Shown: one piece after another, positions 24,110 through 42,613 of the stretch
Position numbering within the stretch: position 1 is the stretch's first letter
How the letters are laid out: the number at the start of each line of letters is the position of its first letter
Assembly (NCBI RefSeq): GCF_001689125.2
Contig: NZ_CP015405.2
Location: forward strand, 1,889,001 to 1,953,000
Direction of reading: 5' to 3'
Length of the DNA stretch: 64,000 nt
DNA from: Blautia pseudococcoides
Lineage (GTDB): Bacteria > Bacillota > Clostridia > Lachnospirales > Lachnospiraceae
The notes under the pieces: model-generated
Told to the model about the DNA's origin: nothing
What the model saw: the letters and a program-made list of their open reading frames with translations, nothing else
Database searches by the model: none
Made by a program: the position numbers and the translations under genes

Positions 24110-24985
24110 TTATTTCACCCCCTGTTTATAATTCGATATCAAATAAATATAACTGTCCTCAAGCGTAGGCTCACAAGCAGCCCCATCTTTCTGCGGAGTG
24201 CCACCACATAAAAATCTACAGGATATATCCGTTCCATTTTGATGAACATTGATAATATGGTACATCTGCTTAAACTTTTCTAATTCATTTTGCATAAGCG
24301 TAGTGGTATATACTTTTCTTTCTCCCAATTTTATCAAGTTACCAATCTGCCCCTCAAAGATCACTTCTCCAGAACATAAAACCGCTACATTAGAACAGGT
24401 CGCTTCTATATCGCCCGCTATATGCGTTGATATTAAAATGATTCTGTCCATAGCAAGTTCAGAAAGAAGATTATAAAAACGTAACCTTTCTTCGGGGTCT
24501 AGTCCAGCAGTTGGTTCATCGATAATTAAAATCTGGGGATTATTCAACAAAGCCTGTGCAATTCCAAAACGCCTTTTCATACCGCCAGATAAATTCTTGA
24601 ATCGTTTATTTTTTTCCTGTTCTAAATGCACTTGTTTTAATAACTCATTGATACGCCGCCTGCGGATATTTTGGGGGAGTTCTGATAAGACAGCAAGATA
24701 CTCCAATGCAGAATACACGCTCATATTTGGATATACCGAAAATTCTTGTGGGAGATATCCTATCATTTTACGAACTTCTTTCTTGTCTTTAATATCAATC
24801 CCATTCATTTGGATTGTTCCTGATGATGGATTCAACATAGTTGCCAGTATACGCATCAGTGTTGTTTTTCCAGCTCCATTTTCTCCTAACAATCCATACA
24901 TACCAACTGGAATATGTAATGAAATATCCTTTAACACACTTTGTTTTCCATATTTTTTATTCAAGTGTTTGATTTTGATTTCCAT
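24110..24985 (-). CDS. ABC transporter ATP-binding protein
   Basis: A 291-residue ATPase. Walker A is GENGAGKTT (residues 35-43), the Q-loop is in YLPQEFSVYP, the signature is LSGGMKRRFGIAQALL, and Walker B with catalytic Glu is ILIIDEPTAGLD. The H-loop reads ISTHIAGD. It begins 18 bases after an AAGGAGG site and is followed at once by two permease genes. The operon has its own promoter at about 25007-25037, which resembles the promoter of the adjacent two-component genes. Confidence 0.93.
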   Translation of the reverse strand: MEIKIKHLNKKYGKQSVLKDISLHIPVGMYGLLGENGAGKTTLMRILATMLNPSSGTIQMNGIDIKDKKEVRKMIGYLPQEFSVYPNMSVYSALEYLAVLSELPQNIRRRRINELLKQVHLEQEKNKRFKNLSGGMKRRFGIAQALLNNPQILIIDEPTAGLDPEERLRFYNLLSELAMDRIILISTHIAGDIEATCSNVAVLCSGEVIFEGQIGNLIKLGERKVYTTTLMQNELEKFKQMYHIINVHQNGTDISCRFLCGGTPQKDGAACEPTLEDSYIYLISNYKQGVK

Positions 24986-25006
24986 AAAAAAACCTCCTTA
25001 TATGTT

Positions 25007-25037
25007 CTATAAGGAGATTATTTCATATGAAAGTCAA
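25007..25037 (-). promoter_or_regulatory. Probable promoter of the ABC exporter operon
   Basis: On the minus strand TTGACT (25032-25037) is followed after 19 bases by TTATAG (25007-25012). The surrounding sequence, including CTAAAAATTGACTTTCATAT, is shared with the promoter at 26938-26967 upstream of the response regulator. Shared sequence and a long spacer fit a promoter that needs an activator, probably the neighbouring response regulator. Confidence 0.55.
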
Positions 25038-25055
25038 TTTTTAGAAAAGTTCCAA

Positions 25056-26240: not shown

Positions 26241-26908
26241 TTATACCCGACTCCCCATACTGTAGAAATATAGGATTTATCTGTAAATTCAGCAAACTTC
26301 AATCTTATTTTTCGTATATGCTCTTTGATAACCGTACTGTCACCGTTGCCATCAATGCCCCAGATGATTTCATACATCTTTTCTCTGTCAAAGACCTGAC
26401 CTGCATTTGTTGACAATAACTTTATAATTTCAAATTCTTTGTTTGATAATTCAACCCGATTGCCTTTAATAAAGAGGCTTCTATCTGAGTAATCAATCAT
26501 CAACTCTTCTGAAAATTTACCTTTCGTCTTATTATGATTTCTTTTTTCACGCCGTAAATGCGCTGAAATTCTTGCTAATAATTCATTTATAGAAAAAGGC
26601 TTTGTAATATAATCATCTCCACCAACCATAAGCCCGTTTATCTTGTCCTGTTCGGATACCCTTGCAGTGAGAAAGAGTATAGGGCATGATACAAAATTCC
26701 GAATAGATGAGCATAAATCAAATCCGTTCATGCCCGCCATGTTAATGTCTAATAAAATAATATCTGGGCTATGAGATATTTTATCCAGTGCCTCTTTTGC
26801 ATTGATAGCGGAATAGACAATGTAACCTTCCAGCTCTAATTGTAACTTTAACATATCCAGTATAGATTGTTCATCATCCACGACTAGTATTTTATATCTT
26901 TCACCCAC
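26228..26908 (-). CDS. OmpR-family response regulator
   Basis: About 226 residues. The receiver domain contains the acidic pair VVDDE, the phospho-acceptor Asp in ILLDINMAGMNG, and Lys in DYITKPF. The C-terminal winged helix ends in STVWGVGYKW. I prefer the GTG at 26908 (VGERYKILVVDD), which lies eight bases from AAGGAG; the GTG at 26917 overlaps that site. It forms a two-gene operon with the histidine kinase. Confidence 0.92.
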   Translation of the reverse strand: MGERYKILVVDDEQSILDMLKLQLELEGYIVYSAINAKEALDKISHSPDIILLDINMAGMNGFDLCSSIRNFVSCPILFLTARVSEQDKINGLMVGGDDYITKPFSINELLARISAHLRREKRNHNKTKGKFSEELMIDYSDRSLFIKGNRVELSNKEFEIIKLLSTNAGQVFDREKMYEIIWGIDGNGDSTVIKEHIRKIRLKFAEFTDKSYISTVWGVGYKWIK

Positions 26909-26937
26909 TACATTCACTCCTTATTTGACAATTCGAC

Positions 26938-26967
26938 TATATAGGACTTATAACATATAAAAGTCAA
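26938..26967 (-). promoter_or_regulatory. Promoter of the two-component genes
   Basis: On the minus strand TTGACT (26962-26967) and TATATA (26938-26943) are separated by 18 bases. The -35 region sits in a segment (CTAAAAATTGACTTTTATAT) repeated upstream of the ABC operon, which suggests shared control and autoregulation. Confidence 0.6.
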
Positions 26968-27079
26968 TTTTTAGTCAAATGTGGAACATATTATTTCTAA
27001 CCGCTCCTTAATCAAGCTACTGTTCAATCACTCTTTTCGGGCTTTCATTTATATTCTTCTTGCCATATCAGGGATTCAT

Positions 27080-27107
27080 TCAAAAGTTGTAAAACTGTTG
27101 TAAAATT
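27080..27107. repeat. Arm-type repeats at right end of element 1
   Basis: AAAAGTTGTAAAACTGTTG followed by TAAAA repeats the tandem GTTGTAAAA pair seen at 16204-16227. The same signature near both ends of the 11-kb segment supports the assigned limits of element 1. Confidence 0.65.
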
Positions 27108-27166
27108 TGATACTATCTTTAATAAACCCATATAAGTTAAGGAGCTTTATCGAGAAATACAACTCC

Positions 27167-27184
27167 TGCCGTGGCAGACGAATA
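27167..27184. repeat. Attachment site copy 2 (junction of elements 1 and 2)
   Basis: The 18-bp core TGCCGTGGCAGACGAATA is identical to the copy in the tyrosine phosphatase gene. Read on the minus strand it is preceded by ATGATTAAAATAT, a phosphatase-like 5' end. It separates the end of element 1 from integrase 2 and so is a junction between tandem insertions. Confidence 0.8.
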
Positions 27185-27320
27185 ATATTTTAATCATATC
27201 TTTTATATCCCTTCATAAGCCCTCAAACCTTGATATTACTGGCTTTCTGGCGCTTTTCTCATTTTTTGTTTTTTACTCCAAACTCACGCAAATCTATATA
27301 AATCTACGCAAATTTACGGG

Positions 27321-27346
27321 CAAATGGTGTAGTAAGTGGTATAGTA
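27321..27346. repeat. Arm-type repeats at left end of element 2
   Basis: The sequence ATGGTGTAGTAAGTGGTATA and following GTA consists of two related units, GGTGTAGTA and GGTATAGTA. An almost identical pair lies at 33812-33832 near the other end of element 2. It is 14 bases beyond the stop of integrase 2. Confidence 0.65.
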
Positions 27347-27359
27347 GACCGGTGTATTT

Positions 27360-28559
27360 TTAACCTGATTTTCTCTGCTTTTCCCGCACATCAGTTACCT
27401 TAAAGCCGATAACTTTTGCCATCTGTTCCGCCGCCCGGTCATAGCTTGCATGAGTGTAGACATTCAGCGTCACTCCCACATCAGAGTGTCCCATTACATA
27501 TTGCAAGGTCTTTATATCCATACCGGAGTTTGCCATGTTGGTGCAAAAGGTATGGCGGAACACATGGGGAGTGATATGGGGCAACGGATTCTCTGGATGC
27601 AGCTTCTTATATTTCTTCATCGCCCAACGCATTTCATTTTCGATATGCAGAGCAACTTTCGGGTGTTCATCTTTGTCAATCAGAAGAAAACCTCTATAAC
27701 CGTCTACAATCATCTCCGTCTTTATTTTCCGGCGATTGGCAAGAATATTTTTCAGACTTTCATAAACTTCTTCTGTCATAGGAATAAAACGGCATCCACA
27801 TTCCGTCTTAGTTTTCTCAACGTAATATTTTCCGCCCCGTTCCCGGACAAGCTGGTGATCTACCCGGATTCTTCGGTTTTCAAAATCCAAATCCCCCTTT
27901 GTCAAGCCACAAAATTCGCTGACACGCATACCAGTTCCCAACAGTACAACAAATTCATCATAGTATTTTGTATAGGTCTTATCTTCCCGGATAAAATCCA
28001 TCCAAATCTTCTGCTGCTCCTCTGTCATGGCAATCCGTTTCTGCGAATCGTTCGGAACGACATCTACTAACTTGAAATCAAAGGGATTCCTGCGGATAAT
28101 GTCCCCATTGTATGCCATCTGAAAAGCGGGTTTGACAACACCCCTGACACTTGTAATCGTGCTGTACCCTTTTCCATCATTATGAAGCTTCATAATCCAC
28201 CGTTGGGCATCTGATACCTTGATGTCCCCTATCTGACGATAGCCGAAATCTTCTTTCTTAATCAGATTTAGGACAAAATTATAGCCGACTTTGGTATTGT
28301 AGCGTACACCCTGTTTTAAGCTGATATAGCGTTCCAAAAGGGCAATCACAGTAATCTTGCCTGCCGCATAGTTAATTCCATCATCAAGCTGCTTTTGGAT
28401 TTCTTTTTCTTTCTCCCGCAGTTCTTTCAGATCAGAAGAATAAATGGTCTGTCGTTTTCCATGAATGTCTGTGTATCGGTACTGATAAATCAGGTCTTTT
28501 CTCTGGCTCTCTCCTGTCCGCAGGATTCTTCCTTTATTGTCTTTTCGTTTCTCGGACAT
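27360..28559 (-). CDS. int: Tn916-type tyrosine integrase 2, intact
   Basis: 399 residues from ATG 28559, with a GGAAAGGAG site upstream. The N-terminal arm-binding domain begins MSEKRKDNKGRILRTGESQR. The catalytic residues are Arg in GTGMRVSEFCGL, His-x-x-Arg in HVFRHTFCTN, His in GHSDVGVT, and the Tyr in NVYTH. It is related to integrase 1 but clearly a different sequence, and it targets the same site, since both elements share the 18-bp core. This enzyme could also act on the core sites flanking element 1. Confidence 0.95.
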   Translation of the reverse strand: MSEKRKDNKGRILRTGESQRKDLIYQYRYTDIHGKRQTIYSSDLKELREKEKEIQKQLDDGINYAAGKITVIALLERYISLKQGVRYNTKVGYNFVLNLIKKEDFGYRQIGDIKVSDAQRWIMKLHNDGKGYSTITSVRGVVKPAFQMAYNGDIIRRNPFDFKLVDVVPNDSQKRIAMTEEQQKIWMDFIREDKTYTKYYDEFVVLLGTGMRVSEFCGLTKGDLDFENRRIRVDHQLVRERGGKYYVEKTKTECGCRFIPMTEEVYESLKNILANRRKIKTEMIVDGYRGFLLIDKDEHPKVALHIENEMRWAMKKYKKLHPENPLPHITPHVFRHTFCTNMANSGMDIKTLQYVMGHSDVGVTLNVYTHASYDRAAEQMAKVIGFKVTDVREKQRKSG

Positions 28560-28659
28560 TGTCAAACTCCTTTCCGTGATGGAAAGAGCCTTGATATGAC
28601 ACATTTATTGTATCACATCAAAGCCGCCTTTTACATCACTTATTTGCATTAGATAGCAT

Positions 28660-30508: not shown

Positions 30509-30781
30509 TTATGGCAGTGCAAATTTATATCCGATACCGGTAACGCTTTTGATATAATCAGGGTCACCCGGTTCTGTCTTTAGCTTTTTTCGCAGATTGC
30601 TTACATGGTTATTGATGGCTTTCCGAGAATAGTAGGTGTAATCTTCGTTCCAAACCAAATCCATGATAACCTCATAGGTAAATACCCGTCCGGGATTCAT
30701 AATGAGCAGGACCAGGATGTCGAACTCTTTTACAGTCAGGGCGATTTCCTGCTCATGAACAATCACACGCCTATATTCCAT
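30509..30781 (-). pseudogene. Winged-helix DNA-binding domain fragment of a response regulator
   Basis: About 90 residues with a complete OmpR-type winged helix: EIALTVKEFDILVLLIMNPG, KAINNHVSNLRKKLK and SVTGIGYKF. No receiver domain precedes it. Its first codons overlap the 3' end of a truncated ABC ATPase gene, and the junction looks like a deletion that joined two genes. It may still be translated as a short DNA-binding protein. Confidence 0.6.
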
Positions 30782-31136
30782 AATAGTCAATCCTTTTTCT
30801 GCACACCCTTTTATCTATTCCAGATAAATTTCCCATGTATTCTAGACACTCTCTGACGGTAAGTGTCGGATATAGGTCGATTTCCTGCGGTAGATAACCA
30901 ATTTTTCTTTGAATTTTCTCATAATTTCCTTCACTGTACAGAATTCCATCCAACGAGACAACGCCTCCCGTCGGTTTTAGAATCGTAGCTAATACCCTCA
31001 TTAGAGTCGTCTTTCCTGCTCCGTTTTCACCCAACAGTCCAAAAATTCCAGTGGGAATTTCTAAATCTGCATGGTTAATTGCTGTAACACCGTTCTTAAA
31101 AGTTACTGTCAAATCTTCAATCTGAATACTCATCAT
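30771..31136 (-). pseudogene. 5' fragment of an ABC ATPase
   Basis: 121 residues containing Walker A (GENGAGKTT) and the Q-loop (YLPQEIDLYPTLTV) and ending abruptly before the signature and Walker B. It resembles the N-terminal 120 residues of the intact ATPase at 24110-24985. The last five residues are encoded by sequence of the adjacent winged-helix fragment. It cannot be a working ATPase. Confidence 0.8.
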
Positions 31137-31395
31137 CTTACCCTCTTTTCTGAATTATTTTCGGTAATGCCGCCATCAAAATTGCTCCGATACAAATACA
31201 TAGCATTTTTCCATAAATACAAGAAACATCTCCATGATTTTCCAAATCTCTGAACGTGTAGGAAAACAAGTTCCATCCTCTTAGGAATTAATCTCCCCAT
31301 CATCTATCAACTGCCTTCCTTTTTGTCGGTTGTTACTCATAATCCGTTGCCCCATATGCGCATTCCTTCTAAAATTAATTGCGGAGGTATTTGCA

Positions 31396-31614
31396 ATGAT
31401 TAAGAAAAAATTTGGATTAGCTGTGAAAAAGTATCGCGAGCAACTAGGCTTAAGTCAAGAAAAATTTGCCCTAAGCATTTCGATGGATCGAACTTATTAT
31501 GCATCTGTAGAATCTGGCAAACGCAATATTTCTTTGCAGAATATTGAAAAAATTGCAAATGGTTTGAATATTTCTCTTTCACAGCTATTTGAAACAATAG
31601 ACACAATTTTATAG
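31396..31614 (+). CDS. XRE-type controller protein of the restriction-modification system
   Basis: A 72-residue helix-turn-helix protein (LGLSQEKFALSISMDRTYYASVESGKRN). The ATG at 31396 has a GGAGG site eight bases upstream; an in-frame start further upstream is not supported. Size, fold and location 19 bases before an endonuclease gene fit a C (controller) protein, which delays endonuclease expression until the methylase has acted. No clear C-box palindrome could be identified by eye. Confidence 0.8.
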   Translation: MIKKKFGLAVKKYREQLGLSQEKFALSISMDRTYYASVESGKRNISLQNIEKIANGLNISLSQLFETIDTIL

Positions 31615-31633
31615 TATACTAAGGAGGTTTATT

Positions 31634-32311
31634 ATGCATAGCTATATAATTAATCACAATATTCACTTTAATTGTGGCTTTCCCCTCACAACTAACAATG
31701 TTATGACCGCGATCCACAATACAAATGATGTATTAGAAAAATTACCCGCTTCACTTTTTCGTAGCATCGATTATAAAACAACTAGTGCAATGATTGGTTG
31801 CATTCTATGCGAAAATATTGCACTCACAACTGATGGTGCCGCAATCGTGAACCCTATTGAAAAAGGACATCCCGATATTGTTCCTCATAAGGCTGTTGGC
31901 TCAACCGAAGAGCAACTTCGCAACTATCCTATAGGTCTTGAAGTCAAATGTACAATTGGCGGTGTACCCAAAGATGTTAATATAAATAAAGCAGCACCCC
32001 GAATTGATTATATATCAAACGTCACTTGGCAAGCACACCACCAAGAAGTTAATGAACTTTTTGGCATTACTTTTGACTACATACGCACACCTTCCGGCTA
32101 TAAGCCAGTTATTTCTGCTACATTCTATAGTGATGAACTTTGTGTTTCAGACTGGGGCGATATTAGTGGAACTGAAGGGCGTAATACAAAAGTCTGTGGT
32201 ATGAAAGCCTCTGGGAAAACTAAAATGGGAGCCGGTTGGTTTGCGATTCTATCTGACACCCCAATTTATTGGCAAAAATATTCTTATCTTTTCAAAATTG
32301 TTGCAAAATAA
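31634..32311 (+). CDS. Type II restriction endonuclease
   Basis: 225 residues with a PD-(D/E)xK nuclease signature: Pro80-Asp81 (GHPDIV) and Glu103-x-Lys105 (GLEVKCT). An AAGGAGG site precedes the ATG. It follows the controller gene in one transcript and converges with the m5C methylase gene, a classical C-R-M arrangement. The recognition sequence cannot be derived from sequence alone. No homing or mismatch motif is seen. Confidence 0.75.
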   Translation: MHSYIINHNIHFNCGFPLTTNNVMTAIHNTNDVLEKLPASLFRSIDYKTTSAMIGCILCENIALTTDGAAIVNPIEKGHPDIVPHKAVGSTEEQLRNYPIGLEVKCTIGGVPKDVNINKAAPRIDYISNVTWQAHHQEVNELFGITFDYIRTPSGYKPVISATFYSDELCVSDWGDISGTEGRNTKVCGMKASGKTKMGAGWFAILSDTPIYWQKYSYLFKIVAK

Positions 32312-32333
32312 GATAGCAATCAGGAGGAAATGT

Positions 32334-33566
32334 CTATTTTGGCATTTCCTCTATTCGCTTTAAATTCTCTCCCAAAAGTTTAGTATATACTGGCGTTACA
32401 GGTTCTCCTAATATATCTCTTAGCAACATAGCACTTGCATATATTTCTTTTCCATTTTTTCTTACCGTCCACTTATATTCATTTGGATTTATTCCAAAAA
32501 GCAATGCCACCTCATATAATGACAATACTCTGTTTTGTGTAGGATGAATATTTTTGTCAGAACAGGCATATGCAGAACGTGTTGTTATTGTTGGTGCAGG
32601 CTCATCTGCACTCATTCTTTTATATGTAGACACAAAACCTTTAATTAATCTATATTCTCCATCTTTTTCTACCGTTGGTTTTGGTAATAATTTTCCGCAT
32701 TGCTTACAAAACACATCCTCTTTTTCTGATATATAATGGCATTCTGGACATTCATTATTATCAAATGCACTACAATTAGGTTTTGTATTCGAAATCCAAT
32801 AATATAATTCAGGTCTTGAAACTGGGACAAAATGTAATGGATGAAAATCAGATTTAGCCATTTTTTTATCAACACTATCCAATGCAGGCAACTGTCCAAT
32901 GGTTTCTCCTACTGTTTTAAAATTAACTTTATCTAATATAGCTTGAGGAAACAACTTATTGACATCAAATGCTTCACCCATTAATTCCTTATCAACAAAT
33001 ACTCCTATAGTTCTTCTTCTATTCTGTGGAATTCCATATTCGGCCATATTATGAACTTCAAACTTGCCAATATATCCCCTTTTTTCTAACTGAATTTTAA
33101 ATTCATCTACAAACAAAACCTCTTTTCCATCTTCATTCAGCAACAATGTATTGAACATTCTATCCACATTCTCCCATACGAAAAATTTAGGTCTAAAACG
33201 TTGCAATAACACCAACGCATATCTATACAAATAATTTCTTTCATCTATCTTTTTTCTTTTGCCCTCCCTTATAGCCTTTTTTATAGATCCAATACCATTC
33301 TTTGACATTCCTTGACAAGGTGGTGTAGCTACCAACATAAATAGTCTTTCACCGTTAAGTTTTTTCAGTGCCTTTTCATATATTTCTTCCAAATGTGTTG
33401 CTATATCTCCTACTATTACATCTGAATCAGGATAATTATTTTTAATAATTTCAGCTCTATTTTCTTCTAACTCATTCATTACAATTGGAATATAGTCCGC
33501 ATTTCTAAATCCAATATCTCCAATTCCACCTCCTGAGAATAAACTTATATATTTGTATTCCTTCAT
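32334..33566 (-). CDS. DNA cytosine-5 methyltransferase with zinc-ribbon insertion
   Basis: About 410 residues from ATG 33566 (GGTGAGGATG upstream). Motif I is ISLFSGGGIGDIGF, motif IV TPPCQGMS with catalytic Cys84, motif VI WENVDR, motif VIII QNRRRTIGVF, and motifs IX/X are PAPTITTRS and HPTQNRVLSLYE. Between VIII and IX, in the target-recognition region, two CxxC pairs (Cys273/276 and Cys287/290) form a zinc ribbon, which is uncommon. It is the protective methylase for the endonuclease at 31634. Confidence 0.93.
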   Translation of the reverse strand: MKEYKYISLFSGGGIGDIGFRNADYIPIVMNELEENRAEIIKNNYPDSDVIVGDIATHLEEIYEKALKKLNGERLFMLVATPPCQGMSKNGIGSIKKAIREGKRKKIDERNYLYRYALVLLQRFRPKFFVWENVDRMFNTLLLNEDGKEVLFVDEFKIQLEKRGYIGKFEVHNMAEYGIPQNRRRTIGVFVDKELMGEAFDVNKLFPQAILDKVNFKTVGETIGQLPALDSVDKKMAKSDFHPLHFVPVSRPELYYWISNTKPNCSAFDNNECPECHYISEKEDVFCKQCGKLLPKPTVEKDGEYRLIKGFVSTYKRMSADEPAPTITTRSAYACSDKNIHPTQNRVLSLYEVALLFGINPNEYKWTVRKNGKEIYASAMLLRDILGEPVTPVYTKLLGENLKRIEEMPK

Positions 33567-33807
33567 ATTTACATCCTCACCTTTAATTGTAAATTTCATG
33601 TATATATTGTCATAAATGCAGAATCTAATCAATCGTCCCAAAATGATTCTTTCCATTCAATATTTGGGCTTTCTGCCATAAATACACCTTCATTCAAATT
33701 GGGCAGACAACGCCTGCCCAATTCACATCATACCAAAACTTTATGAATAATACTATATTTTCAAAAATTTATGTTGAATTTTCTATTTGTCATTTCAAGG
33801 CTCTTTC

Positions 33808-33832
33808 AAAAATGGTGTAGTAGTGGTATAGT
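33808..33832. repeat. Arm-type repeats at right end of element 2
   Basis: ATGGTGTAGTAGTGGTATAG and following TA nearly duplicates the repeat at 27321-27346. Together they bracket integrase 2, the decayed genes and the restriction-modification cassette. Confidence 0.65.
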
Positions 33833-33895
33833 ACGCGCCTTATCCTGCCATGAAATCATTGATTTTACAGGCTCTTAGGGAATATTTCAAGATAC

Positions 33896-33913
33896 TGCCG
33901 TGGCAGACGAATA
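33896..33913. repeat. Attachment site copy 3 (attR)
   Basis: The third copy of the identical 18-bp core. To its right lie ATCAT, CTTAACTCC, TTATATCTTTGATTTT, which read on the minus strand as a start codon, a GGAG site and an upstream region. The same sequence stands upstream of the intact phosphatase gene at 16086-16120. This should be the original 5' end of the phosphatase gene, displaced by the insertions. Confidence 0.8.
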
Positions 33914-34168
33914 GGTTTTTTATCATTGTTTCTTAACTCCTTATATCTTTGATTTTATGGACTTTTTATAGTTTTGTATATTTTTCTATATTTGATAGCG
34001 CACCGTTAACTTATGTAGAAGAACTTTATACTAATTATAGACATTTTCTCACATTATGTATAATTAGTAAAAACTTTGTTAATACTTATATATTTTTAAT
34101 CACGCCATACTTTGTTTCTAAAGCTTTTCTAGGGGGAATAAAGAGAAGTTGTTTTATGAATTGTCTTT

Positions 34169-34499
34169 CTAGAACACATCTTCTTTAAGGACAATAAATG
34201 ATCTAATTTCAATTACTTTTGAAAGAAACTCTGCGTCCAACTTAAACTCAATTTCTGGCTCAAGTGAAAAAAAAACCTCTCTATAACAAGTAGAAGGACA
34301 TTCAACATGTACGAGAAACTCAGCTTTTTCTTCTGATATTAACTTCTGTATTTCATCATTATTCAATTCAAAAGATAATTTACCATATTTCCCTAAACTG
34401 TGTTTTCACCTCATATTCTACCCTAAACGATGAATCAATATAATCATCTCCAAGGTCATTCAGAATTGGATATGGAGTTAATCTATTTTTTATTCGCAT
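34169..34499 (-). pseudogene. Accessory gene of the defence operon, frameshifted and probably truncated
   Basis: The ATG at 34499 overlaps the stop of the GHKL ATPase by 17 bases and gives MRIKNRLTPYPILNDLGDDY and onward, stopping after about 39 codons. Removing one A from TTTAGGG joins it to the next frame (KTQFGKYGKLSFELNNDEIQ), which ends at 34169 after EDVF. From memory, similar proteins next to such ATPases are much longer (about 290 residues), so this gene has probably lost its 3' part, 250 bases from attachment site 3. No motif of known function is visible. Confidence 0.55.
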
Positions 34500-36276
34500 A
34501 ATAATCCACCTCCATCATACAATATCTATCAAAAGAAACTTCTACCTCAATCTTTAATTTTTCATTTTTTATCATTTTACGAAGATAAATAATATTATAT
34601 ATAATAGAATCCACCTCCGCACTACACTCTTTTTCTACTATCATTGCTTTTATTATAGGTAACTCAAAATCACTTTGTTCTCCAGATAATGAAAACTCTA
34701 ATTTTCCTTGTGGTGCAGTTGACGGTACATTAAAGTTCAATATATATTTTCCATTTTTAACATCAGAACATATCAATCTTTTCTTTATATCTATTTTTAT
34801 ATATCCTGTTTTCTTTTCATTTCTATCAAGTCTAGGTTTGGTAACTTGCCCCGGATATGGATTCGGATTTGGGGTTGGAGTATAATCATTTCTTGGTTCG
34901 TGTCCACCTCCAATATCTGTTTTTTCATCGCTTTCCTTAACTTCTACCATTTTAGATTTATTTTTTACTGGTGCCACAGATTTACCTATTAAATTTTTAA
35001 TCAACGTGCTAAGTTCATTCTTACTAACTTTCTCATTATTCTCAGATTCCTTTGTATCAGGCAAAAAATCACTTGAGCCTATTGCATCCATTGAATTAGA
35101 ACTTACTTTTCCATAACATTTTTTAACAGTTTCACGAATATACTTTCTGAAATCATTTAAAATATTATTATATTTTTTCTCTTCTCCACGACATCTTCCA
35201 GGTTCCCAGGCATCATGTGATGGAACTTCCATATTTTTAAATGCTTCATTCATATTATTTCCTTCTTCCTGCAAATATAGAGTGCACTCACCATCTCTAA
35301 ATCCATATTTTTTTCCATAAACCTCAGCATCTAAAGAAATTTTCTTTATCTTTGGATCCGCTGATGTTAATAAATGATAATACTGAAGTAAATCCTTTAC
35401 ATCTTCTCCATCATATGGATTTAGCTGTGCCATATATTTATGTACACTCTTTTTATCTATAATCTCCCCTTGTATATTTACAACCAATTTTCCTTTAACT
35501 AATGAAACAAGGAAATCCATCAGTACAGCACGAATAAAAATCTTTTTAAATTCTTCAGTCTGATGCATTCCAAATATATATATATCTGTTCCCGAATCAG
35601 TTCTTTTATATGTCTTATCAAAATCGGCTAACTCGGGGATTGCCATAAAACTATCATCTTCTGAATAATATCCTACACCCGTTGTCCATCCTCCAATAGT
35701 CTTATCCTCAAATGAAATCAATTTTGCAACTCCAAAATTTGAAACTCTATCATTTATATCTAACGATGAATAAAAAACTGTTCGCAAATCAGAACACGCA
35801 AATGCTGCTGCTTTTCCAATACCAAAACTACCACCTGAACTTTTCCCCTTATTTGATGAACCACTTTCTTTTACCAACCGACTCCAGTTTGTACCTTTTC
35901 CGCAAGTATCGCTTCCTGTTAAACCTATTGTATTATGATCACTTATGCGCAGAACTTTTATCGTTGGTTGACATATAACATTTTCTGCACATTGAAAAAA
36001 TTTCAAAGCATCTGGTTCCTCTTTATTGCTTTCTTTACACTTTTTAATAAATTTCTCAAAATCATCCACATCTGGTATGCAATCTCTTGGCATATCAAAA
36101 CTAACAAATTCTACTAAAACAGGTTTATTTGTATTTGGAACTACAACGTCCAATGAATTCTGAATGCTTTCTCTTTCTAATGATCTATAGATATTTGCAG
36201 TAAAAGTTTCAATACCTGCATCATTTATTCCAACAATAGTGGAATTTTGATTAGAAATAAATCTCCATTTTTTCAT
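34483..36276 (-). CDS. MORC/MutL-like GHKL ATPase of the defence operon
   Basis: 597 residues. The N-terminal GHKL ATP-binding motifs are visible: N box RESIQNSLD (Glu36, Asn40), G1 box SDHNTIGL (Asp113, Gly118), and G2 box GGSFGIGKAAAF (148-159). Residues 400-480 are low-complexity and proline-rich (YTPTPNPNPYPGQV), followed by a beta-rich C-terminal domain. MutL-related MORC-type ATPases are known from bacterial restriction-modification loci; they are thought to clamp DNA on ATP binding. It lies 12 bases after a Sau3AI-type endonuclease gene and is translationally linked to the truncated accessory gene. Confidence 0.85.
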   Translation of the reverse strand: MKKWRFISNQNSTIVGINDAGIETFTANIYRSLERESIQNSLDVVVPNTNKPVLVEFVSFDMPRDCIPDVDDFEKFIKKCKESNKEEPDALKFFQCAENVICQPTIKVLRISDHNTIGLTGSDTCGKGTNWSRLVKESGSSNKGKSSGGSFGIGKAAAFACSDLRTVFYSSLDINDRVSNFGVAKLISFEDKTIGGWTTGVGYYSEDDSFMAIPELADFDKTYKRTDSGTDIYIFGMHQTEEFKKIFIRAVLMDFLVSLVKGKLVVNIQGEIIDKKSVHKYMAQLNPYDGEDVKDLLQYYHLLTSADPKIKKISLDAEVYGKKYGFRDGECTLYLQEEGNNMNEAFKNMEVPSHDAWEPGRCRGEEKKYNNILNDFRKYIRETVKKCYGKVSSNSMDAIGSSDFLPDTKESENNEKVSKNELSTLIKNLIGKSVAPVKNKSKMVEVKESDEKTDIGGGHEPRNDYTPTPNPNPYPGQVTKPRLDRNEKKTGYIKIDIKKRLICSDVKNGKYILNFNVPSTAPQGKLEFSLSGEQSDFELPIIKAMIVEKECSAEVDSIIYNIIYLRKMIKNEKLKIEVEVSFDRYCMMEVDYYANKK

Positions 36277-36288
36277 TTGTTCTTTTTC

Positions 36289-37824
36289 TTATTCTCCTAT
36301 AAACCCTAATTTATTCAATTGCTCTACCACATAAGTTCCTTTTACCCAGTAATTTTGTCTGAGTATTTTTAAACCATTCACGGTCACTTTATCTGTTGCA
36401 TCGCTGCCTGTACCGCGAAAAAAAATCACATTATCCAATGCTTTGGGAAGATTTGTTTCCATCATCTCAATACCTGTTTTCGGTGTATACCGAATAGAAC
36501 CATCTTTCTTCCTCATAACTGTTACTGTTGATTCACCTGTCTGTACTAAACGTTTTGCTTCTTCCCAAGATTTTCTAACCGATGACATAATTTCATCTGA
36601 ACCCAGTTCCAAAATTTTAAATCCCTCAAAAGTATTATCACCATAAACCACATCAGTGTTCATTATTTTCCTATTAGGACTTACTGATATTCTTGGATGT
36701 TCCTGGAAAACTGGACACAGCAATCTGTAATCATTAAAGAAGTTATAAACATCTGTGTCTTCAAATACTTTTTCTTCTCCGTCAATAATTTGGAAATCAG
36801 AAAAATCCAAAGGACATGCAGACAACTTCATATCTTCTGTTCTTCCTCCGTTCTTATTCAAAACAACAATCTGTCCATGTAACCCCAACTTCGCAAGTTG
36901 TTCAATCTGAGAAATCTTTCTAGTTCCCCCAAACATCTTTGCAATGATTTTTTCCCCTGCTTGTTTACAGCTTAGATTATTATCCACACCAAATTCACGG
37001 CATAACTCATTTAATGTCTTTCCTCTATATCGTCTAGTGTATTCCCTACATTCCTTTTCGACATCATTTATTCCCAGATAATGACGGTTAGATTGTTCAT
37101 ATGTATTGTTTATGGAACTCTGTACGATAACCGTTACAAACCTTGCTCTAAAACGAAACCTGGGAGAATTCGGATATTTCGGAGAAGTATCCAAATACTC
37201 CAATTGCTTATTCGCAACTGTAGAAAGATTCGGATACTCTTCTTTCCTAATTTCTTCCTCTGAGTATCTCTCATGAATATCAGTAATAAAATCATGTACT
37301 TTTTGCCAATCACTTGCAATGATCGCTTTATCATCCGCAGAACAATTGTAGAAATAAAAATTCTTTAATGGAAAATCTTTATACTCTGCTGCTTTTATAG
37401 TCATCTTTGAAAGATAATGATAATAAACAAATAAGATTCTCTGTGATTTATGCCAAAATTTAGATGTTTCAAAAGTCTCTAATTCTATCGTAGATATAGA
37501 TACTGCTGTAATACTGCAAGGCTCTTTCGCTTTCCATACACCTCTCGATTTTTCCTGAATACCGATAGTCTTCAATTCTACATCTTCATCATCCACATTC
37601 AAATCAGGTATTTGCTTATTATTTGCCTTATAGCCGAACACAGACTGCTCAATTACATCTCCGGCAATACCCGTTACCTTGGAATTCGTAACTGTCTTAT
37701 CAAAAACATGATTTACATCCACCTCTGCAAGAGTTTTGCCTATGGTAGGAATCAGAATATCATATATCTGCTCTGTCGTATAATGTGGAATCTCTTCCAA
37801 CAGATTTATTTCATGGATACTCAT
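36289..37824 (-). CDS. Sau3AI/MutH-family restriction endonuclease B
   Basis: 511 residues. The N-terminal catalytic MutH-like domain shows GIAGDVIEQSVFGYKANN with the active-site residues Asp74 (IPDL) and Glu83-x-Lys85 (DVELKT). The C-terminal half repeats the fold in degenerate form (SCKQAGEKIIAKMFGG, then KLGLHGQIVVLNKNG), where the Glu-x-Lys pair is lost. This two-lobe build is that of Sau3AI. It is diverged from the second copy encoded upstream and lacks that copy's basic SSSRDRRKQP segment. It is placed between the methylase and the ATPase genes. Confidence 0.85.
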   Translation of the reverse strand: MSIHEINLLEEIPHYTTEQIYDILIPTIGKTLAEVDVNHVFDKTVTNSKVTGIAGDVIEQSVFGYKANNKQIPDLNVDDEDVELKTIGIQEKSRGVWKAKEPCSITAVSISTIELETFETSKFWHKSQRILFVYYHYLSKMTIKAAEYKDFPLKNFYFYNCSADDKAIIASDWQKVHDFITDIHERYSEEEIRKEEYPNLSTVANKQLEYLDTSPKYPNSPRFRFRARFVTVIVQSSINNTYEQSNRHYLGINDVEKECREYTRRYRGKTLNELCREFGVDNNLSCKQAGEKIIAKMFGGTRKISQIEQLAKLGLHGQIVVLNKNGGRTEDMKLSACPLDFSDFQIIDGEEKVFEDTDVYNFFNDYRLLCPVFQEHPRISVSPNRKIMNTDVVYGDNTFEGFKILELGSDEIMSSVRKSWEEAKRLVQTGESTVTVMRKKDGSIRYTPKTGIEMMETNLPKALDNVIFFRGTGSDATDKVTVNGLKILRQNYWVKGTYVVEQLNKLGFIGE

Positions 37825-37969
37825 ATTCCATTTCCTTTCTTATAAGATTTTAATCTTCTATACCGTTTGTCATTTACAGATGCAATTTGTTAGGTTAAGC
37901 TCTCTATGTTCCTATTTAGCTGGCTTTTGCATGGACAGGATTCCCCATAAGTGCTTTTTCCAAACGCAA

Positions 37970-39355
37970 TTATTCCTGGTCGAAAATAGCATCAAGGGTT
38001 CTTTCCATATCCTCAATCAAATTAACTACCAATGCATTTCCCATCATAAAACGTCGCTTTTTAAGTGGCATTTCTACGATTTCTCCATTGAGCAAACAAA
38101 ATTTTGTATGATCTGTTGGAAATCCTTGGATACGTTCCGTCTCCGTAGCTGTTAACAATCGGATTTTTCCTGTCTTTTTATCTTTTACAATATGTGTTGT
38201 CCTACTAAAACTACCCTCTGAAGTCAGCATGGTACGGGCAGGTTTATCATAACTATCCAGCATCGCAATGGCTCCCTCAGAAAAGATATATTCATGACCA
38301 TTCGCCGCCATCCTAGAAAGCTTTTTCCCTCCCTTTATATACTGCCATGTTTGACGATCTTCTTTAGGTAGTTTTCCCTTTGTTTCATCACATCTCGTAA
38401 CAAAGGGATCCGTATAATAAAGCTTCTCTTCTGAGATAAAATAAGATTCATCCACATCTCCTGATTCCATAATGTCTCCTAATGTTATCTGTGTGCCATC
38501 ATACTTGGGTGTCGTCTTAATACTATATACAACTCCATCTTTCATGATCCCTGTATTTTCAAATCCGAAACTAAAACTCTCAGATAACTCACCTATCCCC
38601 TCTGGAAGTTTCGTTATTAAAATTTTCTTATTATCAACATCATTAACAGGAAATGTTTCAGCAAAGAATCCGTCCTTCAACAAAACTTTACCCATACTTA
38701 TTCTCTGTGTTTCTAAATTGTCACTATACTTATATCCAACTTTTTCTTGAATCGTAGCGCAGTATTTCATATCATCCCTATAAGCAAAAATAAATGTACG
38801 TCTTCTGCGCTGTTGATATCCATAATCTGCCGCATTGATCACACGCCATTCGACCGTATATCCCTGATCCCTAAAGCAAGTCAAAATAATTCCAAAGTCT
38901 CTTCCTCTCTGTTTTGCTGGAGACTTTAATAGTCTATCAACATTTTCAAGCAATATAAATGGAGGCTGTTTAGCTTCTATAGTGTCTCGTATAGACCACC
39001 ATAAGACACCCTTTTTTCCTTCTAGTCCCTTTGATGTAGCTAATGATGAAGCCACCGAATAATCTTGGCAAGGAAATCCACCTACCAGAAGATTAAAATC
39101 AGGAATAGATGACTTATCTACCTCTTCTATATCGACGTTTGTGGTATCGTTCCCATTCACATCATATCTAGTGCCGAATCGATACACATAACAATCATGT
39201 GCATACTGCGTTTTCTTCTCTGCTGGTTCCCACTGATTGAACCAGACAGTATCCCATTTTTCTTTTTTATTTACATCCTCTAACGTCTTTATATGGTTCA
39301 ATCCACAACGGAATCCACCTACTCCTGCAAATAACTCACAAACAGTCTTCTTCAT
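37970..39355 (-). CDS. DNA cytosine-5 methyltransferase of the defence operon
   Basis: 461 residues. Motif I CELFAGVGGFRCGL, motif IV GGFPCQDYSVA with catalytic Cys96, motif VI LENVDRLLKSP, motif VIII YGYQQRRRRTFIF, and a long target-recognition region up to PARTMLTSEGSFSR and the C-terminal RIQGFP/MMGNALVV motifs. Starts ten bases after GGAG. It separates two Sau3AI-type endonuclease genes, so it should modify the target of one or both. The M.Sau3AI family methylates C within GATC, but specificity here is unproven. Confidence 0.93.
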   Translation of the reverse strand: MKKTVCELFAGVGGFRCGLNHIKTLEDVNKKEKWDTVWFNQWEPAEKKTQYAHDCYVYRFGTRYDVNGNDTTNVDIEEVDKSSIPDFNLLVGGFPCQDYSVASSLATSKGLEGKKGVLWWSIRDTIEAKQPPFILLENVDRLLKSPAKQRGRDFGIILTCFRDQGYTVEWRVINAADYGYQQRRRRTFIFAYRDDMKYCATIQEKVGYKYSDNLETQRISMGKVLLKDGFFAETFPVNDVDNKKILITKLPEGIGELSESFSFGFENTGIMKDGVVYSIKTTPKYDGTQITLGDIMESGDVDESYFISEEKLYYTDPFVTRCDETKGKLPKEDRQTWQYIKGGKKLSRMAANGHEYIFSEGAIAMLDSYDKPARTMLTSEGSFSRTTHIVKDKKTGKIRLLTATETERIQGFPTDHTKFCLLNGEIVEMPLKKRRFMMGNALVVNLIEDMERTLDAIFDQE

Positions 39356-39438
39356 TTAAAACTCCTCAATCTATTATTTTATATACAACCATTCCGATTA
39401 ATTTTATGATAAATACAGAACTTTGTAAAGATCTTTTT

Positions 39439-40866
39439 CTATTTTTCTAAAAATCTTTTTTCTAATTGGCTTAATATGTAAGAATTATTCAACCAAAAAC
39501 ATTGTTTTGGAAATTTCCTGCCGTCTGGCAAGTCATATGTATCTTTTGCATTTCTTGCGTGTGGTCTGACGTGACATACTGGATTATCAGATGCTTTAGG
39601 AAAATTATTATAATTTTTCCCGTTTCGGACTTCTATTTTCAATCCATCCAGCATCACTTGCTTTGTCGCTTCCCATACAGATTTAACATCACCTTCCAAA
39701 TCTTTGTAAGGAATATTCCAAAATTGACATCCTTTCAACCTTAATTCACTTTCTCTATCATATTTATAGACAACAAACAAAAATCGGGTCTCACGGAGAT
39801 AATTTCCAAAAATAGAGTCATCCCACTCCTCTTGCACCAATTCTTTAAATTTAAATGTAGGAAATGACATATTTTCTCTGATTTTATTATTTTTTTCAAT
39901 CCTGATAGTCTTCACCGCAATATTTGCTTTTTCAAATTCCTCCGCATGATTTCCCTTAATGCCCAATATCCTATACGCTAACATTGCTTCTAGATTTTTT
40001 GTTTTTTTCTGAATATCAATCTGAAATTCCTCACACAATTTTTTGACAGTATACCCACAATATGTATTTATCTTCTCTACAACATAATTTTCAAAAGAGA
40101 CTTCTGCCTTTCCTTTAATAATTGGTTCATATGTGATTTTACCTGGAATAATGTAATTATTCAGAACATAGGTCATATATGAATTTTTAAATGCAAATGC
40201 CCTCGGTTTTGCCAATTCACTACTAAACGGTTGTTTTCGTCTATCTCTTGAACTGGAGGCCTTTGGTGCTGCGCCCAGATATAGAGTATCACTTTCAGAC
40301 AGTTCATGTGCCTTACCAGCCCTTATTTTTTCTGATATAACATAAAAATCTTGTTCGATAATTTTGATATCCTGTTCCGGTGGAGAAAAAAGTTTCACAT
40401 AACCAATTTTATAATCCAATCTATTCTCAATTTCTTTTTGATACAAATAATAAATCAGTAAAATCAATCTTGCTTTTTGCCACATATGGCTTTCTACAAA
40501 GGTTTCATTAACCACTGAATAGTAATCGATCATAGTTAGGATAAGCCTCTCCTTTGCAGAAATAGTTCCATTTTTATTTATCTTATATGGTGTGACTTTT
40601 AGTTCTACTCCAGCTTTTTCAAAATCTGGTTTAGCATCATTATTTGCCTCATAATGAAAATATCTTTCTTCAATTAATTCACCAAGTCCACCTTTTCTTT
40701 TTTTATTTTCGTGTTTCGCTTCGTAGTTGTTTATTTCTCGAACAACCATGGCTTTTGTTATATCATCTTCTACACATACCTCAGCAAAAGTTTTTCCTAC
40801 CAGTTTTTTTCCGTATTCTTCAATCGATATGGGATCAGCTTCATCATATTCTAATTTGTATTGCAT
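39439..40866 (-). CDS. Sau3AI/MutH-family restriction endonuclease A
   Basis: About 475 residues from ATG 40866, with GAGGAG inside the end of vsr. The catalytic domain has GGLGELIEERYFHYEANN, Asp81 (KPDF) and Glu88-x-Lys90 (GVELKV). The basic segment KASSSRDRRKQPFSSEL is also typical of Sau3AI. The C-terminal half repeats the pattern (FEKANIAVKTIRIEKNNKIR against FEKAGVELKVTPYKINKNG in the N-terminal half), with alanine in place of the catalytic Glu position. It is closer to classical Sau3AI than copy B. One base separates it from the vsr stop, so translation is coupled. Confidence 0.88.
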   Translation of the reverse strand: MQYKLEYDEADPISIEEYGKKLVGKTFAEVCVEDDITKAMVVREINNYEAKHENKKRKGGLGELIEERYFHYEANNDAKPDFEKAGVELKVTPYKINKNGTISAKERLILTMIDYYSVVNETFVESHMWQKARLILLIYYLYQKEIENRLDYKIGYVKLFSPPEQDIKIIEQDFYVISEKIRAGKAHELSESDTLYLGAAPKASSSRDRRKQPFSSELAKPRAFAFKNSYMTYVLNNYIIPGKITYEPIIKGKAEVSFENYVVEKINTYCGYTVKKLCEEFQIDIQKKTKNLEAMLAYRILGIKGNHAEEFEKANIAVKTIRIEKNNKIRENMSFPTFKFKELVQEEWDDSIFGNYLRETRFLFVVYKYDRESELRLKGCQFWNIPYKDLEGDVKSVWEATKQVMLDGLKIEVRNGKNYNNFPKASDNPVCHVRPHARNAKDTYDLPDGRKFPKQCFWLNNSYILSQLEKRFLEK

Positions 40867-40867
40867 A

Positions 40868-41350
40868 TTAAATCTCCTCATCATAATCTATCTTCTCAAT
40901 TTTTTGATCAAAAATCACTTCCTCTATTACCCGAATACATTCTTCTGGTTTTTCCAATATGTCTTTCCCCCAAAAATGAATAACTGACCATCCCAGATAT
41001 TGTAGTGCCTGATCTTTTTCAATATCCCGCTGCATATTACGCTGGATTTTTTTCACCCAATAATCCGGATTTCTTCCTTTTTCCAAGCGAGGCCGCAAAA
41101 TTTCCCAATCTTTCCCATGGAAAAACTCACTATCACAAAAAATAGCAATATGATATTTTATTAAGACTATGTCTGGCCTTCCCGGTAAATCTTTATAATT
41201 CTTTCTATAGCGATATCCCTTTTTCCACAATTCCTTTCGTAGTTTTGTTTCAATCACAGTGTCTTTTCCACGAATACGACTCATAGTTTTATGACTTTTT
41301 TCTGTTACTTCTCCATGAAATCTTGGTTCAGTAGGTTTTTCTATTCCCAC
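40868..41350 (-). CDS. vsr: Vsr-type very short patch repair endonuclease
   Basis: 160 residues. The Vsr pattern is clear: KTMSRIRGKDTVIETKLRKELW at the start, catalytic Asp60 in GRPDIVLIKY, the CDSEFFHGKDW loop, and the C-terminal NMQRDIEKDQALQYLGWSVI with HFWGKDI. The start is a GTG at 41350 with AGGAG ten bases upstream. Vsr nicks at T:G mismatches produced when 5-methylcytosine deaminates, and so accompanies m5C methylases. It is the first gene of the minus-strand defence operon. Confidence 0.92.
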   Translation of the reverse strand: MGIEKPTEPRFHGEVTEKSHKTMSRIRGKDTVIETKLRKELWKKGYRYRKNYKDLPGRPDIVLIKYHIAIFCDSEFFHGKDWEILRPRLEKGRNPDYWVKKIQRNMQRDIEKDQALQYLGWSVIHFWGKDILEKPEECIRVIEEVIFDQKIEKIDYDEEI

Positions 41351-42613
41351 TAAATATCAACTCCTATTAACTAAAGTATACAATTAATTTTTAAAGGCTG
41401 ACCACCTTACTTCTTGCACTAATAGAAGATTCTAATCGTCTCTTGATTTACGGTCAACCTCTATACCGTCCGATGATTTTTCGTAAACCACTATGCAAAT
41501 TTGCGTTTTTCTAAGGTTAAATTATACGGTTTTTCGTCTTTTCCACCACTATATTTAATAATTCTCTATATAGTTAAACAATGTCCGCGATGTCGTCTGA
41601 TTTGCAATCCTGAATCTCACATACCCTACCCAACACTCCCACGCGGACATTTTCATTTTCCCAAGTTTCACTAGCGCATTGGTATGAATTTTTGCAGATA
41701 TAATCAAATCCATTATCATCATTTTACATTCTTCATATATTTCCATAATTTACAGGCATTGATTCGCCCCTATTTGTTGTATAACCAGCAAGTCATTATT
41801 TGTATTTTAACATCTTGTTCACTTGTACACAATCGAATAATCCTAAATTGCAATCTTCATTGGCACCCCTTTACCTATATCATTGTGCCCCCGAAAATCT
41901 TGCTTTGCATATCTCATGCCCGTATATAATATATCGTACCCTTATGCTCAACTTCACAATAATTTCAGAATCTACCCAAAACTTATCTGTACCATTCTAG
42001 GCGTAATTGCCTAAGCCCTTTCGGAATCAAAAAAGCTTCCCGAAATTTACTGCTGCTGTTTTACTTCCGGCAAAGATTTTACCTCTTTAGGTTCCTCCCA
42101 GGCATAATGCACTGCGGAATTATCATATACCAATGACAAAATTTTACCACAAGTGACAAATGATTGCTATACAGAACATCTACAATAATTTTTCCATCCC
42201 CAACCACTCCTACGCAAACATAAAAGCGATCATAATATCAGGCTCACCCCCAATACCATGACCGCTAACTGCTCCAAACCTATATTACCCCACAATATTA
42301 TGAGGCACATACTTTTCTACCGGATAACTATTTCCTGCTGCATAAGTTTTATACCGAAGCATCTTTTCTCTTTGCCAGTTCAGATATACGCCTGACAATC
42401 TCCATATCACTTTCCTGTGTTTTATCATGTTTTCCCTTTACAGTCACATCTGTCCTGCTTCTCAAAGTATCTGCATAACAGTTAGACTGCTGCAGCCTTC
42501 CGGCTGCCAGGGGTATGCTATCCTTACCAAATTTTGTTCTGCCGCCTACTGCATCTCCATAAACGGATTACCATACATTAATTTTGTTTTTAAAACACCC
42601 ATTTACATACTTC
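41351..42613. other. 1.26-kb AT-rich gap with a possible gene remnant
   Basis: No full-length gene is seen. On the minus strand a run of 42 codons from about 42172 to the stop at 42047 reads SLVYDNSAVHYAWEEP and then VKSLPEVKQQQ. It has no start codon and looks like the C-terminal remnant of an unidentified protein. Several short frames lack ribosome-binding sites. This stretch probably marks the right edge of the acquired DNA, but no att repeat or tRNA was found here. Confidence 0.4.

What the first reader, a model, noticed from the sequence alone, without database searches (positions are those of the whole stretch)
34169..41350. Six-gene defence operon: Vsr, two Sau3AI-type nucleases, m5C methylase and a MORC-like ATPase
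The sequence shows one minus-strand operon in the order vsr, Sau3AI-type A, m5C methylase, Sau3AI-type B, GHKL ATPase, truncated accessory gene, with short gaps or overlaps. MORC/MutL-like ATPases in restriction loci are established (Iyer, Abhiman and Aravind, 2008). A combination with two distinct MutH-fold endonucleases around one methylase is, as far as I can judge, unusual. I infer a restriction system in which ATPase-driven DNA clamping licenses cleavage by a nuclease pair.
Basis: partly seen in the sequence, partly recalled or inferred. Interest (0 to 1): 0.75.

Follow-up and report, generated by a model that had tools for sequence, protein, structure and literature searches.

The report
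Two-nuclease restriction operon, decayed ATPase module
This is a bacterial restriction-modification operon in which one DNA methylase probably protects the cell from two different Sau3AI-type DNA-cutting enzymes, followed by the broken remains of a known candidate antiviral ATPase module, so the ATPase-driven mechanism proposed for it probably does not work in this copy.

Summary
The operon is real: vsr, Sau3AI-type nuclease A, m5C methylase, Sau3AI-type nuclease B, GHKL ATPase and a truncated gene, all minus strand. Both nucleases keep the E/D/ExK residues. Each type occurs alone elsewhere with a methylase of the same clade and a similar recognition region (76% identical to a B partner's, 74% to an A partner's), so one methylase probably protects against both. 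Of 13 other Sau-type regions fetched, only L093 has two such nucleases.

The ATPase is PADLOC candidate PDC-M33A, a MORC/Hsp90/MutL-fold protein with the ExxxH signature of paraMORC2. In 37 of 41 other loci M33B is directly followed by M33C (DUF6339). Here M33A lacks 36 residues (three S5 strands) kept by 48 of 49 aligned rows, M33B is frameshifted and ends at position 109 of 289, and M33C was not found in the genome. The proposed ATP-clamp mechanism is therefore unlikely in this copy. M33A genes linked to Sau3AI-type systems do fall in one clade (6 of its 8 members), so a MutL-MutH-like partnership remains possible for intact relatives.

The parts
40868..41350 (-). vsr: very-short-patch-repair-type endonuclease, 160 aa
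   Evidence: TIGR00632 115.6 bits over cut-off 97.85, PF03852 82.6 bits; relatives 70-80% identical in L010, L093, L094, L096, L100, L103
39439..40884 (-). Sau3AI-type nuclease A, 481 aa, catalytic motif intact
   Evidence: NF040973 559.9 bits; PDB Sau3AI 4pxg E 1.8e-75; E, D, ExK residues; 80% identical in L093
37970..39355 (-). m5C DNA methylase, probably protecting against both A and B, 461 aa
   Evidence: PF00145 188.4 bits; PADLOC PDLC03329 512.9 bits; its clade accompanies both A- and B-type nucleases; recognition region compared
36289..37824 (-). Sau3AI-type nuclease B, 511 aa, a separate clade, catalytic motif intact
   Evidence: PF02976 73 bits; PDLC03570 306.6 bits; B clade in tree of 26 nucleases; motif
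34483..36276 (-). PDC-M33A GHKL+S5 ATPase (paraMORC2-like), 597 aa, carrying an in-frame 36-residue deletion (junction near 35265/35266)
   Evidence: PDC-M33A 562.5 bits; fold of intact relative P0002; deletion
34380..34499 (-). PDC-M33B remnant, profile positions 1-40, in a different frame from the rest
   Evidence: genome 1923380-1923499 = window 34380-34499; the answer notes a stop inside
34169..34381 (-). PDC-M33B remnant, profile positions 41-109 of 289; no more of the gene was found
   Evidence: M33C not found in own genome, same search positive in 4 of 4 control genomes
31330..31614 (+). control (C) protein of a separate adjacent restriction system (not part of the operon)
   Evidence: PADLOC Control_protein 84.8 bits for 31393-31611
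31634..32311 (+). type II restriction enzyme of the separate adjacent system (not part of the operon)
   Evidence: PADLOC REase_II PDLC03564 199.4 bits
32334..33656 (-). m5C methylase of the separate adjacent system (not part of the operon), with a possible zinc-ribbon insert
   Evidence: PF00145 103.9 bits; Zn_ribbon_3 at residues 301-324 below its cut-off, 16.1 against 27 bits

Best explanation
A type II restriction-modification operon of the Sau3AI kind. The m5C methylase marks the host's sites. Nucleases A and B, from two separate MutH-fold clades, probably cut the same unmethylated site (GATC would be the guess from Sau3AI, whose site I recall), and Vsr probably repairs the T:G mismatches that arise where m5C deaminates. 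The locus looks like the union of two recurring arrangements, vsr-A-M and M-B-(other genes)-M33A-M33B-M33C, around one methylase. The M33 ATPase module at its end has decayed and probably no longer works, so restriction here most likely runs without it. Shown: gene content, motifs, clades, exchange of nuclease partners, decay. Inferred: same site, enzyme activity, the benefit of two nucleases (for example different sensitivity to phage DNA modifications or inhibitors) and origin by union.
For: Families and motifs. Nuclease tree: A (18 rows) and B (8 rows) each one side of a branch at 100/100; methylase tree: A and B partners scattered, 4 changes forced by well-supported branches, about what shuffled labels give (mean 4.6). 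Closest methylase (L103, 83%, recognition region 76%) has a B nuclease only; the next (L100, 79%, recognition region 74%) has an A nuclease nearby; 62-69% in A-partner systems L010, L093, L094, L098, L101; 56% in B-partner L104. Orders: vsr-A-M (L094; L010 with an extra gene), vsr-A-A2-M (L093), vsr-B-M (L103), M-B-vsr-M33ABC (L008), M-B-two genes-M33ABC (L011), M33ABC-vsr-A-M (L007, and L010 with the extra gene). Decay of M33: the 36-residue block is kept by 48 of 49 rows; M33B broken; M33C not found in the genome (positive control).
Against: Recognition sites were not measured; B falls below the NCBIfam Sau3AI cut-off (176.6 against 300 bits) and could cut another site or be inactive. No other locus examined has A and B beside one methylase. 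The M-B-M33 relatives L008 and L011 have methylases only 49-50% and B nucleases only 35-37% identical to the window's, and the nearest methylase locus, L103, showed no M33, so the union is inferred from gene order, not from close kinship. M33A keeps an open frame across the deletion (cluster P0001: 6 member sequences, 82 contigs), which might mean a retained role. The A/B labels were first assigned by best BLAST match to the window's two enzymes, so their separation in the tree is partly built in.
Confidence: 0.7

Rival explanations
1. One reading: the GHKL ATPase clamps DNA and licenses cleavage by the pair A+B, as one integrated six-gene system.
For: Closely spaced genes on one strand; GHKL+S5 fold like Hsp90, MORC, topoisomerase VI and MutL in an intact relative; Sau-linked M33A genes fall in one clade, 6 of its 8 members, 1 of 500 shuffles as clustered.
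Against: Three S5 strands lost from the ATPase, M33B broken, M33C not found. A- and B-type nucleases each occur alone with such methylases. 37 of 41 M33A loci show no Sau3AI-type neighbour within about 7 kb (some contigs end sooner).
Confidence: 0.07
2. A and B form an obligate heterodimer (type IIT-like; that class is recalled), each cutting one strand of an asymmetric site.
For: Two nucleases with intact motifs lie beside one methylase; L093 (A and A2) has a comparable pair.
Against: Each type occurs alone with the same methylase clade, and the recognition region of the window's methylase is about equally like that of a B-only and of an A system, which points to one site for both.
Confidence: 0.07
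3. Nuclease B is a passenger left over with the M33 remnant, intact in sequence but without selected function; the working system is vsr-A-M.
For: B sits directly next to decayed M33 genes, and in L008 and L011 a B-type nuclease lies one or two genes before M33A.
Against: B is full length against its relatives (511 aa; 515 and 477 aa in the two at 85-87% identity) and keeps the catalytic residues; in L103 and L104 a B-type nuclease stands with a methylase of the same clade and no A.
Confidence: 0.16

Closest known systems
Sau3AI-family type II restriction-modification systems
   Same: MutH-fold nuclease with C-terminal Sau3AI-like domain (A; PDB 4pxg, 2reu, 7xm0), neighbouring m5C methylase, vsr in part of the related loci
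   Different: Two nucleases from two separate clades beside one methylase; remnant of an ATPase module at the end
PDC-M33 (PADLOC phage defence candidate: M33A GHKL, M33B, M33C DUF6339)
   Same: M33A (562.5 bits) and part of M33B (70.9 bits); same A-B order as in relatives
   Different: M33A internally deleted, M33B broken, M33C not found: a decayed copy
paraMORC2 family (Iyer, Abhiman and Aravind 2008, PMC2292703; sections 4 and 5 read, other passages found by term)
   Same: GHKL+S5 architecture, invariant ExxxH, Gram-positive hosts, methylase and Vsr neighbours
   Different: The main text does not contain the word Sau3AI (0 occurrences); its figures and supplementary lists were not seen, so no direct comparison with its members; the window's S5 domain is incomplete
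MutL-MutH-Vsr mismatch repair
   Same: A MutL-type ATPase fold, MutH-fold nucleases and a Vsr nuclease brought together
   Different: None of the six operon genes matched a MutS family; restriction context with a methylase; ATPase decayed here

Membership tests
Sau3AI-family type II RM | MutH (PF02976) nuclease domain over the curated cut-off | tested here: met
   A 137.4 bits, B 73 bits, cut-off 23
Sau3AI-family type II RM | NCBIfam NF040973 Sau3AI equivalog cut-off (300 bits), nuclease A | tested here: met
   559.9 bits
Sau3AI-family type II RM | NCBIfam NF040973 Sau3AI equivalog cut-off (300 bits), nuclease B | tested here: not met
   176.6 bits: B is a Sau3AI-like nuclease of another clade, not filed as a Sau3AI equivalog
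Sau3AI-family type II RM | Catalytic E / D / ExK residues | tested here: met
   Both A and B; which residues are catalytic in MutH is recalled
Sau3AI-family type II RM | Adjacent m5C methylase | tested here: met
   37970-39355
Sau3AI-family type II RM | Recognition of GATC | not testable with these tools
   Needs biochemistry or methylome data; the site itself is recalled
Vsr | TIGR00632 cut-off | tested here: met
   115.6 against 97.85 bits
PDC-M33 system | M33A present | tested here: met
   562.5 bits, but with a 36-residue deletion
PDC-M33 system | Intact M33B | tested here: not met
   Positions 1-109 of 289 in two frames
PDC-M33 system | M33C (DUF6339) | tested here: not met
   0 matches in own genome; same search finds it in 4 of 4 control genomes
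[quoted passage not shown]
   E393 and H397 (P0002 numbering) invariant in 49 rows, window included; definition from PMC2292703. A short motif: suggestive, not proof
paraMORC2 | GHKL plus S5 fold | tested here: inconclusive
paraMORC2 | Sequence match to the original paraMORC2 members | not tested
MORC proper | GhXhhpXXRhl motif in S5 | not tested
   No motif search was made
Type IIT heterodimeric restriction enzyme | Both subunits needed for double-strand cleavage | not testable with these tools
   A- and B-type nucleases each occur alone elsewhere, which argues against it; activity cannot be measured here

The most novel reading that the evidence does not exclude
One lineage of M33 ATPases has specialised on Sau3AI-type (MutH-fold) restriction systems and acts as a MutL-like, ATP-driven activator or matchmaker for them, with the nuclease (A or B type) exchangeable while methylase and ATPase module persist; the window is a descendant that kept both nucleases and lost the ATPase partner. 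This would be a restriction counterpart of the MutL-MutH-Vsr pathway.
Probability: 0.15. Interest if true: 0.65.

Novelty: new variant of a known kind. Interest (0 to 1): 0.38.

Why it matters
It suggests that one methylase lineage serves two separate clades of nuclease, so restriction enzymes can be swapped or stacked without changing the host's methylation, a simple possible route to broader phage resistance. It also points to a lineage of M33A genes tied to MutH-fold nucleases, where a MutL-like role for a bacterial MORC relative could be tested on intact copies such as those of Butyrivibrio sp. FCS014 (L010) or Longibaculum muris (L011). For this window it corrects the reading: the ATPase is probably a decaying remnant, not the engine.

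Tried and rejected
Rejected: a working ATPase-licensed system in this copy (deletion, broken M33B, M33C not found). Rejected as further cases of paired Sau3AI-type nucleases: L148, where the second protein that matched A by BLAST (28%) is an AIPR protein by Pfam, and L184, whose second match (28%, only residues 332-477 of A) is of the same sort but was not scanned by a family library. Doubtful: Priestia megaterium pBP01R2b (L119), where the second protein has a weak MutH hit (26.8 bits, cut-off 23) but no ExK motif could be aligned, and a second methylase lies nearby.

Led nowhere: megablast of 31300-41600 against plasmids, no match; tblastn of B against phages, 3 records, at most 31% identity; viral-contig scans with A3, A1, B and A, no relatives (these scans use short exact patterns and can miss relatives); viral-contig scan with the methylase, 42 loci, of which 7 hold an A-type match and none a B or M33 match by BLAST; Foldseek of an M33B model gave only weak matches (TM to the query about 0.2; mainly cytokine-receptor and fibronectin-like chains), not used; PDB sequence search with the M33A profile, none; genus search for the right-hand flanking gene gave only 36-44% matches outside the window's own copy, so I did not look for an empty site. 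Class and phylum samples searched with the B-family alignment gave 3 of 390 and 3 of 297 other genomes; on reading them only G313 is B-type (a piece, with no methylase or M33 match on its 12-kb contig) and the other five are A-type with a methylase nearby. Paper searches. The seven papers listed have no occurrence of PDC-M33 or DUF6339; bioRxiv is not held. That PADLOC's PDC names come from a preprint by Payne and colleagues is recalled, not seen.

Rows dropped: G084, a weak M33A match (E 2.1e-5), was left out of the 41 loci; read later (L187) it has a 709-aa protein with 25% identity to an M33A over part of its length, no M33B or M33C match. In one search rows L116 and L120 were dropped as the same record as, and a near-copy of, L118, and M33A pieces of 500 aa or less were left out (38 rows kept), so L050, L059, L071, L072 and L073 are not in that tree. 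In one search locus L096 is in the nuclease tree only (no methylase match in the stretch), L102 and L122 likewise, and L105 and L110 in neither.
Full report
What is there. The minus strand between 34169 and 41350 carries vsr, nuclease A, an m5C methylase, nuclease B, a GHKL ATPase and a short fragment; the five full genes overlap or are separated by at most 145 nt. The block lies in an AT-rich stretch (2-kb windows at GC 0.30-0.36 from 31001 to 42000, against 0.42-0.51 to the right of 43000 and 0.40-0.46 just to the left). Pfam, NCBIfam and PADLOC support the names. A passes the Sau3AI equivalog cut-off (559.9 bits against 300; PDB Sau3AI 4pxg, E 1.8e-75). B is a MutH-fold nuclease of another clade (176.6 bits on the same model; 4pxg, E 1.9e-5). 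Both keep the E, D and ExK residues. A scan found no terminator-like site inside the block, but its total was at chance level.

The module elsewhere. M33B relatives cluster in 37 of 41, and in the same 37 a third gene of median 251 aa lies within 100 nt after M33B on the same strand; L060, L067, L072 and L073 lack both. Three of these third genes were scanned: DUF6339 and PADLOC M33C. Within about 7 kb, where the contig allows, an m5C-methylase-like gene lies in 25 of 41, vsr in 8 and a Sau3AI-type nuclease in 4. In whole-genome samples M33A (E at most 1e-20) occurs in 15 of 397 genomes of the family and 10 of 391 of the class, the window's included. Split or fragmentary M33A genes are not rare: L022, L050, L059, L071, L072 and L073.

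Decay in the window. M33A lacks 36 residues (P0002 345-380) that 48 of 49 aligned rows keep. They span three predicted strands (351-355, 361-365, 374-380) and the near-invariant positions R356, G359, M360, F374 and G376. M33B is present as positions 1-40 and 41-109 in two frames. DUF6339 is not found in the genome, whereas the same search finds it in 4 of 4 genomes chosen because they carry it. I infer that the module no longer works here. Against that, the GHKL motifs remain in the N-terminal part and the frame stays open, in a cluster of 6 sequences on 82 contigs.

Two nucleases, one methylase. In a tree of 26 nucleases, A-type (18 rows) and B-type (8 rows) separate at 100/100; the labels came from best BLAST matches to the window's two enzymes, so this is partly built in, and the program warns of a long branch (L118). 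In a tree of 20 methylases the partners are intermingled: four label changes are forced by well-supported branches, about what shuffled labels give (mean 4.6; about 170 of 500 shuffles as low). The window's methylase is closest to that of L103 (vsr-B-M; recognition region 76% identical), then L100 (A nearby, opposite strand; 74%), with L093, L098, L101, L094 and L010 (A-type; 62-69%) and L104 (B-type; 56%) in the same nine-member clade. One methylase type thus accompanies either nuclease type, which makes a shared site likely. GATC is an analogy with Sau3AI, recalled, not a result. The eleven more distant methylases (recognition region 29-37%) also accompany both types, so the argument is strongest inside the clade of nine.

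How unusual it is. Matches to the Sau3AI model occur in 13 of 397 sampled genomes of the family, the window's included. Of 13 regions fetched from the other 12 genomes, one, L093, holds two nucleases with intact motifs (A and a divergent A2) and one methylase. Of six further regions none does convincingly. No other locus examined has A and B together. In plasmids, L119 is a doubtful case.

Conserved pieces. Vsr-A-M (L094; L010 with an extra gene; L093 with A2), vsr-B-M (L103), M-B-vsr-M33ABC (L008), M-B-two genes-M33ABC (L011) and M33ABC-vsr-A-M (L007, and L010 with the extra gene) occur. The window reads as vsr-A-M joined to M-B-M33 around one methylase. This is inferred from order: L008 and L011 are distant (methylase 49-50%, B 35-37% identical), and L103, the closest methylase, showed no M33. 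Six M33A genes linked to Sau3AI-type systems (the window, L007, L008, L010, L011 and a Priestia plasmid, L118) fall in one clade of eight (100/100); 1 of 500 label shuffles was as clustered, though relatedness helps such clustering. One of the two unlinked members, L009, has only about 2 kb of contig after M33C. The clade includes both A- and B-type partners, which suggests that any link is with the system rather than with one nuclease. Against a fixed link: of the 15 M33A-bearing and 13 Sau-bearing genomes of the family sample only two carry both, the window's and G777, and in G777 the two lie more than 1 Mb apart.

Mechanism. Most likely: methylation of host sites, cleavage of unmethylated incoming DNA by A and by B independently, repair of deamination mismatches by Vsr (its role is given in PMC8011034, passages seen), and no working ATPase. 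Whether two nucleases broaden protection is conjecture. For intact relatives, the coming together of a MutL-fold ATPase, a MutH-fold nuclease and Vsr invites a MutL-MutH-like model; Iyer and colleagues had already drawn the parallel between MORC-type ATPases of restriction loci and MutL with MutH and Vsr. Against it, 37 of 41 M33A loci show no such nuclease nearby.

Verdict. It is a variant of a known kind: a Sau3AI-type restriction operon with a stacked second nuclease and a decayed PDC-M33 module. A search of the held library for PDC-M33, DUF6339 and paraMORC listed 7 papers, none with the first two terms; three further searches, of which I saw only the listings, showed no title describing this arrangement. 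Preprints are not held.

Noticed in passing
window 31330-33656: A second, separate restriction system lies directly next to the operon: control protein, type II nuclease (plus strand) and a convergent m5C methylase with a possible zinc-ribbon insert near residues 301-324 (below the Pfam cut-off).
   Followed up: partly
window 16272-28604: Genes of an integrative element: phage-type integrase (16272-17396), rolling-circle replication initiator (18254-19459) and Tn916-type integrase (27360-28604), with a two-component system and ABC-transporter genes between (22715-26917).
   Followed up: no
window 30509-31136: Truncated ABC-transporter ATPase (121 aa; ABC_tran 57.7 bits) next to a 93-aa frame that by eye resembles the DNA-binding end of a response regulator: apparent remnants at the left edge of the AT-rich stretch.
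   Followed up: no
L016, L017, L018, L019, L020, L022: In six Paenibacillus loci M33ABC is flanked by methylase-like genes and followed by a gene of one cluster whose L016 member scores as the GHKL protein MzaB (258 bits; other members not scanned), suggesting a combined M33-Mza island.
   Followed up: partly
L010 14077-14778: A 233-aa gene of unknown family sits between vsr and nuclease A in Butyrivibrio sp. FCS014; no convincing Pfam hit and no PADLOC hit.
   Followed up: partly
L113 (Aerococcus urinaeequi plasmid pT4302): A short DUF6339 gene stands beside a B-type nuclease and a methylase, with no M33A or M33B match in the 6.7 kb read: possibly another decayed M33 copy at a Sau3AI-type locus.
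   Followed up: partly
L148 12405-14546 and L184 5891-8080: Long proteins (713 and about 730 aa) near A-type nuclease and methylase match the C-terminal part of nuclease A at about 28%; the L148 one is an AIPR protein by Pfam (43.5 bits), so AIPR proteins may share a domain with Sau3AI's effector half.
   Followed up: no
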